The notes under the pieces: model-generated
Databases searched by the model: none
Seen by the model: only the letters and a program-made list of their open reading frames with translations
Told to the model about the DNA's origin: nothing
Virus record (IMG/VR): IMGVR_UViG_3300030104_000402
Span: 1 to 28,329 of that record
Length of the DNA: 28,329 nucleotides
Direction: 5' to 3' (one strand)
Source of the DNA: a virus
Shown here: positions 20,648-25,783 of the stretch, piece by piece
Numbering within the stretch: the first letter of the stretch is position 1
Layout: the number at the start of each line of letters is the position of its first letter
Translations under genes and position numbers: made by a program

Positions 20648-21002
20648 GCACACTCCAATTTATGCAAGTCAAGAACATCAAACATTAATTGAAGTATATA
20701 TTAATACTTGTAAAGATTTTTGTAAAGATGTAAGTTCTAAGAGTAGATACAACAATTATTTAGATGTTATAGAAACCATAATAGAATATCATAATAACTA
20801 TGGCTCAGGGGTAAAAGAAAATAACTATTATGATTGGTTGATGATTATTCCAATAAATTTATCAGTTGCTACTAATGGTTATTTTGCTGCATTAGAAACA
20901 AAGAGAAATGCATCAGTAATAAGAAGTTATAAAGTTATATTAGAACAAATGTTGGTGGATGTCGTAACTAAGATAGATGATTTTGAAATAAAAAATGACT
21001 GA
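20646..21002 (+). CDS. Hypothetical protein, 118 aa
   Basis: The helical product has TLIEVYINTCKDFCKDVSSK, ETIIEYHNNYGSG and a hydrophobic WLMIIPINLSVA stretch. No motif is recognised. It overlaps the sigma-like gene by eight bases, which suggests coupled expression and perhaps a partner role. Confidence 0.55.
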   Translation: MHTPIYASQEHQTLIEVYINTCKDFCKDVSSKSRYNNYLDVIETIIEYHNNYGSGVKENNYYDWLMIIPINLSVATNGYFAALETKRNASVIRSYKVILEQMLVDVVTKIDDFEIKND

Positions 21003-21567
21003 CATTTACATAAAAATTTCTGAATTGACTGATAAATTTAGGGAAATGTGTTATGGAATTAGTAATGATGAAAACAGGATAAATGAAGCTGTACAAGAAT
21101 TAATGTTGTATTTTTTACAAATGAATCCTGATACATTAAAAAGAATATATCAAAAAGATGGAAAACAAGGAATATTAAAATATGGAGCAGTAGTTCTTAA
21201 AAGAGCATTAACAAGTCCAAGAAGTCCATTTTATTATAAGTATGAAAAATATTATACAAATATTGTTGACATCAATACTGGTAGTAGGAATTCTGTTACT
21301 CAACTTGATTATAGTTGTGATAGCAATTACTATAAAACTTTATCAAATATGCCTAATAAAACTGAAACAAATCAATGGGAAAAATTAGAACAAATTGATT
21401 TGGTATTAGATGAACTCAATTGGTATGATAGAGAATTGTTTAAACTATATTATTATGAAGGAAACACATTAGATGGTTTAGCAGCAAAAACTAGAATTAG
21501 TAGAAATAGTATATTTAGTACAATAGATAAGGTGAGAGATATTTTAAAAAAAGAATTAAATGACTAA
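20995..21567 (+). CDS. Sigma-70-like factor
   Basis: The 190 aa product ends in a region 4-like helix-turn-helix at about residues 133-188: LVLDELNWYDRELFKLYYYEG, then DGLAAKTRISRNSIFSTIDK. The N-terminal part (INEAVQELMLYFLQMNPDTL, YGAVVLKRAL) is helical and could stand for region 2. Such divergent sigma-like proteins are common in Bacteroidota phages. It could direct host RNA polymerase to late promoters, possibly linked with the 13-base motif found before four virion genes. The role is inferred. Confidence 0.65.
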   Translation: MTDIYIKISELTDKFREMCYGISNDENRINEAVQELMLYFLQMNPDTLKRIYQKDGKQGILKYGAVVLKRALTSPRSPFYYKYEKYYTNIVDINTGSRNSVTQLDYSCDSNYYKTLSNMPNKTETNQWEKLEQIDLVLDELNWYDRELFKLYYYEGNTLDGLAAKTRISRNSIFSTIDKVRDILKKELND

Positions 21568-22480: not shown

Positions 22481-22694
22481 AAAAATGAAAAGAAGGTCAA
22501 GAACATACTTGAAAAGTCAAAGAAATAAAGCAATAAAATATTATTTCTTAAATCCTGATACTACTCTAAAATGTTTAGCAGAAAAATTTAGAGTAAATCA
22601 AGATAAATTAAGCAAAGATATAAGCGAAAAATTAGAACAACGATTTAAAAATAGTATAGCAAAAAAACATATGCAAAATGAAACAAAAAATTAA
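22467..22694 (+). CDS. Small HTH protein, 75 aa
   Basis: The product is very basic and contains a helix-turn-helix-like stretch at about residues 24-52 (YFLNPDTTLKCLAEKFRVNQ, DKLSKDI). It overlaps its neighbours by 14 and 17 bases. It is probably a DNA-binding regulator. A second start, ATG at 22470, is in frame and would remove only the first residue. Confidence 0.55.
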   Translation: MMNFKKMKRRSRTYLKSQRNKAIKYYFLNPDTTLKCLAEKFRVNQDKLSKDISEKLEQRFKNSIAKKHMQNETKN

Positions 22695-23196
22695 ACTTTA
22701 TAAAATAAAGGGCAATCCAAAAAACCCTAGAATTATTAAAGATGATAAATTTAAAAAATTAGTTAAGTCAATTAAAGAATTTCCAGAAATGTTAGAAAAA
22801 AGACCTATTGTAGTTGATGAAAATTTAATGGTGTTGGGTGGTAATATGAGATTAAGAGCAAGTAAAGATGCAGGACTTAAAGAAGTGTGGATTGATATAG
22901 CAGAAGGATGGACTCAAGAACAAAAAGATGAATTTGTAGTGAAAGATAATGTTAATTTTGGAGAATGGGAATGGGATATATTAGCTAATGAATGGGATAG
23001 TGTACAGCTTGCTGAATGGGGGTTAGATGTATGGCAAAATGAAGATGATGAACAAAATAATGATGTTAAAGATATATCTGATAATATATCTGAAGAATTT
23101 AGAGTTGAAATAGAATTAAATTCAGAAAGAGAACAAGAACAATTATATAATGAACTAACTAAAAAAGGATACAAATGCCGAATTTTGACATTTTAA
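22678..23196 (+). CDS. ParB-like nuclease-domain protein
   Basis: The 172 aa product has the N-terminal domain of the ParB/KorB fold: NPKNPRII, then FKKLVKSIKEFPEM, RPIVVDENLMVLGGNMRLRA with the box at 54-61, and EQKDEFVVKDNVNFGEW. Unlike chromosomal ParB it lacks the HTH and dimer domains. In phages such stand-alone proteins often lie beside DNA-modifying enzymes. It overlaps the ABC-GNAT gene by 22 bases, so the two are probably made together. CTP or DNA binding is possible but not shown. Confidence 0.75.
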   Translation: MKQKIKLYKIKGNPKNPRIIKDDKFKKLVKSIKEFPEMLEKRPIVVDENLMVLGGNMRLRASKDAGLKEVWIDIAEGWTQEQKDEFVVKDNVNFGEWEWDILANEWDSVQLAEWGLDVWQNEDDEQNNDVKDISDNISEEFRVEIELNSEREQEQLYNELTKKGYKCRILTF

Positions 23197-24254
23197 GAGA
23201 GAGTAAACCAAAAAAATCATTTCGTGTTTCTGCAGTAATGGGTAAATTTGATTTACAAACAGAACACATAAAAGAACATTTTAAAGGAAATATAGATTTA
23301 CCAACTCATTGGAAAATTGGATTAATAGTAGGAAATAGTGGTACTGGAAAAACAACAATAGCAAAAGAATTATTTAAAGATGCATATGTGACTAATTTTA
23401 ATTACAAAGCAGAAACTATTTTAGATGATATGCCAGAAAATGCATCAGTAGATGATATAACTAAAATATTTAATAGTGTTGGGTTTAGTTCACCACCAAG
23501 TTGGTTAAAACCTTATTCTGTACTTTCTAATGGACAAAAGATGAGAGTTGATTTGGCCAATGCTCTTTTAAAAGATGACAAACTTATAGTATTTGATGAA
23601 TTTACGTCAGTAGTTGACCGTAATGTTGCTAAAATAGGTTCATATGCTATGCAAAAAGCAATAAGAAAATCAGACAAACAATTTATAGCAGTAACTTGTC
23701 ATCACGATGTACAAGATTGGTTGTTGCCAGATTGGATATTCAATACTGATAGTATGACCTTTCAAATACTTGAAGGGCAAAAAAAAAATAGACCAAAAGT
23801 TAAATTTGAAATATTCAAAACAAGAGACAAGTCAGTATGGAGAATATTTGCTAAACACCACTATTTAAGTCATACTCATAATAATGCAGCACATACATAT
23901 GTTGCATATATTAATGAACAAATAGCAGGTTTTATAAGTATATTACATTTACCAAATAAAAAACCTAATTTAAAAAAAGTTCATAGATTAGTAATATTAC
24001 CAGACTTTCAAGGAATAGGAATAGGAGGAAGATTATTAGATTTTATAGCTAAAAAATATACAAAAGAAAATTATATTTTTGGAATAACTACTTCAGCACC
24101 AAGTTTAATTTTTTCATTAAAAAGAAATAAAAACTGGAAATGTTATTTTTTTGGTAGAAATACAGGAAAACAAAAAATGGTAGAATTTAACAAAACAAGT
24201 ACAAAAAATAGAATAACAGCAGCATTTAGATATATACAAAATGGAACAAAATAG
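23175..24254 (+). CDS. ABC-type ATPase fused to a GNAT domain
   Basis: The 359 aa product joins two parts. Residues 1-205 are an ABC-type ATPase: Walker A GNSGTGKT (53-60), signature LSNGQKMR (117-124), Walker B LIVFDEF (137-143), D-loop and a switch His in CHHD (175-178). No membrane segment is present. Residues 212-359 are a GNAT fold: AKHHYLS (226-232), VHRLVILPDFQG and the acyl-CoA loop QGIGIGG (279-285), then ITTSAPSLI. Phage Mu Mom is a GNAT-fold enzyme that modifies adenine in DNA; a similar role here is inferred from the HY motif, the ATPase and the ParB and terminase neighbours. Protein or small-molecule acylation is the alternative. Confidence 0.8.
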   Translation: MPNFDILRESKPKKSFRVSAVMGKFDLQTEHIKEHFKGNIDLPTHWKIGLIVGNSGTGKTTIAKELFKDAYVTNFNYKAETILDDMPENASVDDITKIFNSVGFSSPPSWLKPYSVLSNGQKMRVDLANALLKDDKLIVFDEFTSVVDRNVAKIGSYAMQKAIRKSDKQFIAVTCHHDVQDWLLPDWIFNTDSMTFQILEGQKKNRPKVKFEIFKTRDKSVWRIFAKHHYLSHTHNNAAHTYVAYINEQIAGFISILHLPNKKPNLKKVHRLVILPDFQGIGIGGRLLDFIAKKYTKENYIFGITTSAPSLIFSLKRNKNWKCYFFGRNTGKQKMVEFNKTSTKNRITAAFRYIQNGTK

Positions 24255-24594
24255 AACACAAATAGCAAAAAAAAGAATGTTAGAAGCACTAGAAAAAAGT
24301 CTAGGAGTTGTAACAACAGCATTGAAGGCAACAGAATTGTCGAGAACAAACTATTATAAATGGCTCAAAGAAGATGAAGAATTTGCAGCTAAAGTTCAAG
24401 AAATAGAAAACATATCAAAAGACTTTGTTAAGTCTAAATATTACGAATGCGTAAAAGATAAAGTACCATCAGTAGTAATACACGCTGCAAAAACAAAATT
24501 AGGATGGAACGAAACTAATAATATAGATATAACATCAGGTAATAAACCAATTAATATGCCTGTAATAAAATTTGTAGAAACTGATACTGAATAA
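24241..24594 (+). CDS. Terminase small subunit-like HTH protein
   Basis: The 117 aa product has a homeodomain-like helix-turn-helix: RMLEALEKSLGVVTTALKAT, then LSRTNYYKWLKEDEEFAAKV, typical of small terminase or phBC6A51-type proteins. The middle (FVKSKYYECVKDKVPSVVIH, AAKTKLGWNE) is a common continuation. It directly precedes the large terminase. It would recognise the packaging site on phage DNA. Confidence 0.75.
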   Translation: MEQNRTQIAKKRMLEALEKSLGVVTTALKATELSRTNYYKWLKEDEEFAAKVQEIENISKDFVKSKYYECVKDKVPSVVIHAAKTKLGWNETNNIDITSGNKPINMPVIKFVETDTE

Positions 24595-25783
24595 GAAATA
24601 TAATGCTTTATTTAATTCCGATGCTAGGTACTTTATAATCACAGGAGGTAGAGGTTCAGGAAAATCTTTTGCTGTTACTGTATTTTTAACACTACTTACA
24701 ATGTCAGCAGGAATTAGAATATTATTTACAAGATTTACAATGGTGTCTGCACACTTATCTATTATTCCAGAATTTTTAGAAAAAATAACATTATTAGGAT
24801 TTGAAGATATTTTTGATGTTAACAAAGCAGAAGTATTAAATACAAGCAATCAATCCGATATATTATTTAGAGGAATAAAAACATCATCAGGTAATCAAAC
24901 AGCAAGATTAAAGTCTTTACAAGGAATAAGCTGCTGGGTATTGGATGAAGCTGAAGAACTTATTGATGAAGATATATTTGACACTATTGATTTAAGTATA
25001 AGGGAGAAGGGAGTACAAAACAGAGTTATTTTAATTCTTAATCCAACAACAAAAGAACATTGGATATATAATAGATTTTTTCAAGACAAAGGCGTAGAAG
25101 CAGGTTTTAATGGCGTTAAAGACAATATATGTTACATCCATAGTACATACCTAGATAATAAAGATAATCTCTCTAAAAGCTTCCTAGAACGTGTAGAGGG
25201 GTTAAAACATATTAACTTTAAAAAGTACCAACACAAAATATTAGGTGGTTGGTTAGATAAAGCAGAGGGAGTTGTATTTGAGAATTGGAAGTTTGGAGAA
25301 TTTAATCCTGATGATTTACAAACATCTTGTGGAATGGACTTCGGTTTCAGTATTGACCCTGATAGCTTGATAGAAGTAGCAATAGATAAAAAGCATAAAA
25401 AAATATATGTAAAAGAATATATCTATCAAAATGGTTTAAAATCACACGAATTAGCAAAAATAGTTTTAGATAAAGTAGATAATAAATTAATAATAGCAGA
25501 TAGTGCAGAACCAAGACTAATAGAAGATTTAAGACATTTAGGGGTAAACATTAAACCTGTAAAAAAAGGTACTATTGAAAGTGGAATAACCAGGATGCAA
25601 GATTATGAATTAATTGTAGAACCTGAATCAAATAATATAGCTAAAGAATTAAACAATTATGTTTATGCAGATAAAGGAAGTAAGTTATATGTTGATTCTT
25701 ATAATCACGCTATTGATGCAATAAGATATAATGTAACATATCATTTAGATAATCCAAATGCAGGAAAATATTATGTACAGTAA
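24587..25783 (+). CDS. Terminase large subunit, non-ATG start
   Basis: The product powers DNA packaging and cuts DNA. In the frame from CTG 24587 (398 aa) it has Walker A GGRGSGKS (20-27), Walker B WVLDEAEE (117-124), coupling motif ILNPT (150-154), and nuclease Asp residues at GMDFGF (D251), IADSAE (D305) and HAIDAIRY (D377). The first ATG, 24701, lies after the Walker A motif and would destroy the ATPase. The frame opens after a TAG at 24575; CTG at 24581 or 24587 are the only usual near-cognate starts before the conserved part. The start overlaps the small subunit by eight bases. Confidence 0.9.
   Translation: MNKKYNALFNSDARYFIITGGRGSGKSFAVTVFLTLLTMSAGIRILFTRFTMVSAHLSIIPEFLEKITLLGFEDIFDVNKAEVLNTSNQSDILFRGIKTSSGNQTARLKSLQGISCWVLDEAEELIDEDIFDTIDLSIREKGVQNRVILILNPTTKEHWIYNRFFQDKGVEAGFNGVKDNICYIHSTYLDNKDNLSKSFLERVEGLKHINFKKYQHKILGGWLDKAEGVVFENWKFGEFNPDDLQTSCGMDFGFSIDPDSLIEVAIDKKHKKIYVKEYIYQNGLKSHELAKIVLDKVDNKLIIADSAEPRLIEDLRHLGVNIKPVKKGTIESGITRMQDYELIVEPESNNIAKELNNYVYADKGSKLYVDSYNHAIDAIRYNVTYHLDNPNAGKYYVQ

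What the first reader, a model, noticed from the sequence alone, without database searches (positions are those of the whole stretch)
22678..24254. ParB-like protein plus ABC-ATPase-GNAT fusion beside terminase: candidate DNA-modification cassette
Seen: a ParB-fold protein overlaps by 22 bases a gene that fuses a complete soluble ABC ATPase (Walker A, LSNGQ signature, Walker B, switch His) to a GNAT domain with a KHHYLS motif and a QGIGIGG acyl-CoA loop; terminase follows. Known: the Mu Mom protein is a GNAT-fold enzyme that modifies adenine in DNA and protects it from restriction. I also recall, without being able to check, ParB-like and ABC-type ATPase genes near phage base-modification enzymes. 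Inference: ParB and the ATPase could recognise or remodel phage DNA while the GNAT part modifies it just before packaging. The fusion of motor and transferase in one chain is unusual.
Basis: partly seen in the sequence, partly recalled or inferred. Interest (0 to 1): 0.8.

Follow-up and report, generated by a model that had tools for sequence, protein, structure and literature searches.

The report
Swappable phage DNA-modification cassette with ParB adaptor
This phage carries a two-gene cassette, a ParB-like protein and an ATPase fused to an acyl-transfer enzyme, that sits where sister phages carry known DNA-modifying enzymes (Mom, TET, glycosyltransferases, methyltransferases), so it very probably chemically disguises the phage DNA from bacterial defences.

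Summary
Observation confirmed. A ParB_N protein (22678-23196) overlaps by 22 nt an ABC-ATPase-GNAT fusion (23175-24254; family phrog_11143, function unknown) just before the terminase genes. The overlap recurs in 74 of 75 close homologues.

The DNA-modification reading is well supported, though not via membership of the Mom family (Pfam and profile tests negative). (1) In the window's sister phages, DNA homology stops at about 23,050, inside ParB, and resumes at about 24,238, the TerS start. The exchanged stretch holds methyltransferases, Mom, TAGT glycosyltransferase plus epimerase, or Tet_JBP plus TAGT. (2) In Porphyromonas Mu-like phages a Mom gene and an ABC-GNAT(+formyltransferase) module replace each other in an otherwise near-identical genome. 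(3) In 69 of 80 Mu-like loci ABC-GNAT follows Com, the translational activator of mom.

New detail: ParB's first ~125 residues are shared by all these effectors. Its ~40-residue tail changes with the effector, and Mu-like phages keep only that tail as a microprotein. A formyltransferase often follows.

Prior art: Aravind's group had already predicted acyl base modification by a GNAT-ABC pair (PMC7824862). Chemistry, target base and the roles of ParB and ATP are inferred. No wet-lab data were found.

The parts
22678..23049 (+). ParB_N module (residues 1-124), the shared part: 64-86% identical to ParBs in sister phages that carry other DNA-modification effectors
23050..23196 (+). Effector-specific C-terminal tail of the ParB protein (VEIELNSEREQEQLYNELTKKGYKCRILTF); occurs alone as a 47-118 aa ORF (mostly 50-65 aa) in Mu-like phages
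23175..23789 (+). ABC ATPase domain (about residues 1-205): Walker A GNSGTGKT, LSNGQ signature, DE Walker B, switch His176
23808..24251 (+). GNAT acyltransferase domain (residues 212-359) with HHYLS motif and QGIGIGG acyl-CoA loop; separate gene in Lactobacillales phages
23050..24238 (+). Exchangeable cassette: DNA homology to sister phages is lost between these points and replaced there by MTase, Mom, TAGT/epimerase or TET/TAGT genes
24241..24594 (+). Terminase small subunit-like gene, overlapping the end of ABC-GNAT; right border of the cassette
24578..25783 (+). Terminase large subunit; the open frame with Walker A (GGRGSGKS) reaches upstream of the listed ATG at 24701 with no ATG/GTG/TTG start

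Best explanation
The cassette is a phage DNA-modification (anti-restriction) module that works like Mom but with a different enzyme. Shown by comparison: the ABC-GNAT gene occupies the same exchangeable genome slots, and in Mu-like phages the same com-controlled operon position, as proven or well-predicted DNA modifiers. Shown: ParB has two parts, a common ParB_N module and a tail that goes with the effector; the tail goes with ABC-GNAT in the groups studied and survives alone in Mu-like phages. Inferred: the tail docks ABC-GNAT; ParB_N brings the complex onto phage DNA or licenses it there; ATP-driven closure of an ABC dimer clamps or distorts the duplex and exposes a base; the GNAT domain transfers an acyl group from an acyl-CoA-type donor onto an exocyclic amine; a tailoring enzyme (formyltransferase in Mu-like and Gordonia-type phages, none in this window) may add a further group or supply the donor. 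The result would be DNA resistant to host restriction before packaging. I give about 0.85 to modification of phage DNA and about 0.3 to each finer mechanistic step.
For: Slot exchange in sister phages: homology ends at 23,036-23,059 and resumes at 24,226-24,240 in nine of the eleven relatives compared, which carry N6/N4 MTase fusions, TAGT+epimerase, Mom or Tet_JBP+TAGT in between. About 30 of 49 assessable sister loci carry such a gene. All sister-slot phages tested that way share the window's capsid family. Porphyromonas phage008a vs 012a: 95.5% over 14.7 kb and 88% over 3.1 kb, then ABC-GNAT+formyltransferase versus Mom (PF25680, 5.9e-56), then a shared 93-bp right end. Com (PF10122) upstream in 69 of 80 Mu-like loci, overlapping the tail ORF as com overlaps mom in Mu. 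A tail HMM built only from Mu-like microproteins finds 159 of 177 full ParBs beside ABC-GNAT and 0 of 14 ParBs beside other effectors. Streptococcal ParB_N (residues 1-121, 74% identical) is fused to an N6/N4 MTase in Javan178, again before terminase. Catalytic motifs conserved.
Against: No biochemical or sequencing evidence of a modified base was found. GNAT vs Mom profile comparison is not significant and no Mom domain is hit. Some large phages (PX29, VmeM-32, pT24) and P12024S carry ABC-GNAT without a detectable ParB or tail, so ParB is not universal; PX29 also has a Mom elsewhere. A slot for anti-restriction genes could also hold a protein-directed anti-defence enzyme. DNA binding by ParB_N or ABC is not shown: no HTH domain was detected.
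Confidence: 0.85

Rival explanations
1. ABC-GNAT is an anti-defence or host-takeover enzyme that acylates a host protein (as phage Rac acetyltransferase does to RNA polymerase) and only shares an anti-restriction slot with DNA modifiers.
For: The GNAT fold is closest to generic small-molecule and protein acetyltransferases (1y9k, Naa50, RimI); profile hits in PDB are Naa50 and diamine acetyltransferases at weak E.
Against: Nearly all annotated alternatives in the slot are DNA-modifying enzyme types; the gene is under Com in Mu-like phages; it pairs with a ParB_N that is fused to DNA methyltransferases in sister phages; late/packaging-side position rather than early.
Confidence: 0.08
2. ParB plus ABC-GNAT is a DNA segregation or packaging factor (ParB/SMC-like), with GNAT as a regulator, and no base is modified.
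For: ParB_N and an ABC ATPase recall ParB-SMC; position next to terminase in the window and several other groups.
Against: In Mu-like phages the module lies at the right end, away from terminase, and lacks ParB_N entirely; sister phages replace it with MTases, Mom or TET without losing the terminase; about a third of sister loci have no such gene in the slot.
Confidence: 0.04
3. A finer variant of the best explanation: the acyl step is only part of a longer hypermodification. GNAT attaches an aminoacyl (for example glycyl or beta-alanyl) group that is then N-formylated, or the PF00551 enzyme makes formyl-CoA as the GNAT's donor.
For: PF00551 gene directly downstream in 33 of 45 Gordonia-like and 20 of 40 assessable Mu-like loci, HPSLLP motif invariant in the consensus of 68 genes, absent from 79 Mom loci of which 56 have at least 700 nt downstream; a PanD aspartate decarboxylase (2e-33, makes beta-alanine) follows ABC-GNAT in Jace.
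Against: The Asn of the usual formyltransferase N-x-H motif is replaced (GYHPSLLP), so activity is uncertain; no such gene follows ABC-GNAT in window-like or Pmp13-like loci, so it cannot be needed everywhere.
Confidence: 0.3

Closest known systems
Mom of phage Mu (com-mom operon; PF25680), N6-carbamoylmethyladenine
   Same: GNAT-superfamily enzyme; right-end position in Mu-like phages, preceded by Com; direct replacement of one by the other in Porphyromonas phages and in the window's own slot.
   Different: Not in the Mom Pfam family, hhalign not significant; canonical acyl-CoA loop; fused or paired with an ABC ATPase; ParB or ParB-tail partner; often a formyltransferase.
GNAT coupled to ABC ATPase, predicted by Iyer/Aravind and colleagues to acylate a DNA base (stated in PMC7824862, example Tenacibaculum phage pT24)
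   Same: Same family: pT24 is hit by the window protein at E=1e-40. The general functional prediction is theirs.
   Different: The passages I could read do not mention ParB tails, Com linkage, Mom exchange or formyltransferase; their 2013 paper is not in the library, so I cannot exclude that it notes some of this.
Phage ParB_N-DNA methyltransferase fusions
   Same: Same ParB_N module (78-82% identical over residues 1-125) in the same slot.
   Different: Methyltransferase is fused directly instead of being a separate protein reached through a tail.
TmcA/NAT10 RNA cytidine acetyltransferase (from general knowledge)
   Same: ATPase joined to a GNAT that acetylates a nucleic-acid base.
   Different: DEAD-like helicase rather than ABC ATPase; acts on RNA; profile match here only E=0.11 over the CoA loop.

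Membership tests
Mom protein family (PF25680) | Significant match to the Mom profile | tested here: not met
   No PF25680 among listed hits of the window protein; hhalign against 29 Mom proteins: probability 1.8%, E=0.027 over 51 columns
Mom protein family (PF25680) | Invariant HYS motif | tested here: inconclusive
   hhalign lines window KHHYLS up with Mom HHYS; the alignment as a whole is not significant
Mom protein family (PF25680) | Operon with Com at the right end of Mu-like phages | tested here: met
   Met by Mu-like members (69 of 80 with Com; right end); not by the window phage itself, which has another genome plan
Mom protein family (PF25680) | Produces N6-carbamoylmethyladenine in DNA | not testable with these tools
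   Needs nucleoside mass spectrometry
ABC-GNAT family phrog_11143 | Full-length profile match with both domains and motifs | tested here: met
   E=1.6e-97 over residues 6-356; motifs
ABC ATPase superfamily | Walker A, LSxG signature, Walker B Glu, switch His | tested here: met
   Invariant or over 90% in 43 diverse members
ParB/Srx superfamily, ParB_N | ParB_N profile match with GxxRxxA-type motif | tested here: met
   E=1.7e-5, 1 bit below the Pfam cut-off; PHROG ParB families down to 9e-23; GGNMRLRAS present
Chromosome/plasmid partition ParB | Central HTH domain and ParA partner | tested here: not met
   172 aa: ParB_N plus a short tail, no HTH domain hit; no ParA noted in the window ORF lists, not searched for specifically

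The most novel reading that the evidence does not exclude
ParB_N is a general adaptor platform for phage DNA modification: one module guides or licenses many unrelated modification enzymes (methyltransferases, Mom, TET/TAGT, TAGT/epimerase, ABC-GNAT) through interchangeable, effector-specific tails. With ABC-GNAT it forms an ATP-driven base acyltransferase that, with the formyltransferase in some phages, makes a DNA base not yet described.
Probability: 0.35. Interest if true: 0.85.

Novelty: new variant of a known kind. Interest (0 to 1): 0.68.

Why it matters
Phage DNA modifications underlie escape from restriction and supply new enzymes for biotechnology. This cassette probably makes an unknown acylated base, is widespread (76 tblastn phage records, hundreds of viral contigs), and sits in a slot where nature has already done the swap experiments. 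The ParB tail rule gives a direct way to predict which unknown genes are DNA-modification effectors, and a direct test of what phage ParB proteins do, an open question stated in a recent paper (PMC12783734). ABC-GNAT phages already in culture make the chemistry testable.

Tried and rejected
(1) Membership of the Mom family: tested with Pfam and hhalign, rejected. (2) Identifying the acyl group or target from fold: GNAT model vs PDB gives only generic GNATs; profile vs PDB likewise. BFVD returns family members (Leptospira LE4 366 aa; probably the Enterococcus 9184 entry) and then generic GNATs. (3) ABC transporter function: no permease noted beside the cassette; 'ABC transporter' and 'siderophore' annotations in phage records look like name transfer. 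(4) PADLOC defence assignment: only the ABC core matches mad3 (9.8e-11 over 74 residues), not a system call. (5) Whole-genome context of the host: the window is a viral record only. (6) PF09299 as a Mu marker: nothing rang even in controls, so Gam was used (9 of 20); not all of the Komp-like group are proven Mu-type transposable phages. (7) Some FORMYL HMM hits inside ABC-GNAT frames were artefacts and were removed by requiring start position and length. (8) Published restriction or nucleoside data for LE3/LE4: none in the paper.

Full report
WHAT IS THERE. The window is a 28.3-kb viral record, 29% GC. The two ORFs are as described. ParB_N is recognised (1.7e-5); the second protein has ABC_tran (1.1e-9) and Acetyltransf_1 (9.9e-10) and belongs as a whole to phrog_11143, function unknown (1.6e-97). 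TerS-like and TerL genes follow. AlphaFold2 from a 43-member alignment gives mean pLDDT 89.7 for the full chain and 88.4 for the GNAT domain alone. Catalytic motifs of both halves are kept in almost all of 247 full-length relatives, so both activities are probably real.

DISTRIBUTION. tblastn finds 76 phage records in phages of Firmicutes, Bacteroidota, Actinobacteria, Spirochaetes and Proteobacteria (some of the weakest, under 26% identity, match only the ABC half). Viral contigs gave four groups: window-like, Gordonia-like, Komp/Mu-like and Pmp13-like. The ParB gene (or its tail alone) lies immediately upstream in 75 of 75, 35 of 40, 75 of 80 and 44 of 44 assessable loci; the 22-nt overlap is almost invariant in the window-like group. 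In Streptococcus, Lactococcus and Oenococcus phages ABC and GNAT are separate ORFs (in P335 and Vinitor-27 overlapping by 4 nt): natural fission, consistent with one working complex.

THE SLOT. Eighty sister phages were fetched by their TerL (83-92% identity). None showed ABC-GNAT; in 49 with enough upstream sequence, about 30 carry other modification genes there. Pfam on representatives: N6_N4_Mtase fused to ParB_N, stand-alone N6_N4 and C5 MTases, Mom (1.4e-37, 1.3e-48, 8.8e-35), TAGT (3.2e-41) with NAD epimerase, and Tet_JBP (2.9e-9) with TAGT. DNA alignment shows sharp borders: homology is lost at 23,036-23,059 and regained at 24,226-24,240. These relatives share the window's putative capsid family, as do the ABC-GNAT carriers. 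The nearest ABC-GNAT copies are 92-94% identical while the same phages' capsid protein is only 54-55% identical, and L006 has a different terminase, so the cassette moves between phages.

THE MOM POSITION. In Porphyromonas phage008a a short ORF, ABC-GNAT and a formyltransferase gene are the last genes at the right end, in a phage annotated with transposase, MuB-like and Gam-like proteins. Phage012a is 95.5% identical over 14.7 kb and 88% over a further 3.1 kb, then has a Mom gene instead (PF25680 5.9e-56), then the same 93-bp end. In 69 of 80 Komp/Mu-like loci the gene before is Com. Com overlaps the small tail ORF (median about 44 nt) as com overlaps mom in Mu. Of 79 Mom loci none has ABC-GNAT or the formyltransferase nearby. 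That Com activates mom translation is established knowledge; that it does the same here is inference.

THE PARB TAIL. In the sister slot, the first 125 residues of ParB are 64-86% identical to the window's whatever the effector, but residues 126-172 are only 15-32% identical. Each effector type has its own tail. In the Mu-like group only the tail remains: 79 of 80 loci, 47-118 aa ORFs, mostly 50-65 aa. A profile built only from those microproteins recognises 159 of 177 full ParBs next to ABC-GNAT in the other groups, none of 14 slot ParBs paired with other effectors, and nothing in the Mom loci. Streptococcal phages show the same exchange: Javan178 has a ParB_N 74% identical to that of MismyG but fused to an MTase. 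I infer that the tail is the contact with ABC-GNAT and ParB_N a shared DNA-side adaptor; neither contact is shown.

TAILORING GENES. PF00551 formyltransferase-like genes follow directly in 33 of 45 Gordonia-like and 20 of 40 assessable Mu-like loci; HPSLLP is invariant but the usual Asn two residues before His is replaced. ASCH genes follow in Streptococcus and Oenococcus phages and PanD in Jace. ASCH has been proposed as a modified-base reader, and YqfB as an N4-acetylcytidine amidohydrolase (both from memory). None of these is in the window.

WHAT IT IS NOT. Not a Mom-family member by profile tests. Not a partition ParB (no HTH). Not a transporter.

PRIOR WORK. PMC7824862 says a GNAT coupled with an ABC ATPase was previously predicted to acylate a DNA base, naming pT24; pT24 is in this family. 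PMC12783734 notes ParBc domains fused to DNA methyltransferases with unknown function. My searches found no experimental report on ABC-GNAT. The library lacks most subscription papers and Iyer 2013.

VERDICT.

Noticed in passing
L441:2998-4086 (Streptococcus phage Javan576): ParB_N fused to DUF4417 (PF14386, 9.8e-71) shortly before the terminase genes, where relatives have ParB-MTase or ParB + ABC-GNAT. DUF4417 may therefore be an unrecognised DNA-modification effector; phage MM1 has a similarly named gene.
   Followed up: partly
L092:4870-4998 (Porphyromonas phage008a): The gene annotated 'acr candidate' is the ParB-tail microprotein that precedes ABC-GNAT, which argues against reading it as an anti-CRISPR.
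   Followed up: yes
L309:2892-5334: Another variant of the window's slot: glycosyltransferase group 1, a 292-aa protein without Pfam hit, and a divergent ParB_N. The unknown protein may be a new modification enzyme.
   Followed up: partly
L351:3506-5539: Compact ParB + TAGT + Tet_JBP cassette in the window's slot, i.e. a predicted oxidation and glycosylation system in a close relative.
   Followed up: partly
L442:2974-4914 (Dulem virus 36): ParB followed by a weak TRM methyltransferase-like protein and a radical SAM protein; possibly another ParB-linked modification set.
   Followed up: no
window 24578-24701: The TerL frame, including its Walker A, is open upstream of the first ATG with no ATG/GTG/TTG; a CTG start overlapping the TerS stop is likely. 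Sister phages look alike here.
   Followed up: partly
window 20995-21567: Weak sigma-70 region 4-like protein (6e-4) upstream of the packaging genes, with relatives in window-like loci; possible late-gene regulator.
   Followed up: no
L094:6101-6526 (phage Jace): Aspartate decarboxylase PanD (2e-33) directly after ABC-GNAT, possibly supplying beta-alanine or CoA.
   Followed up: no
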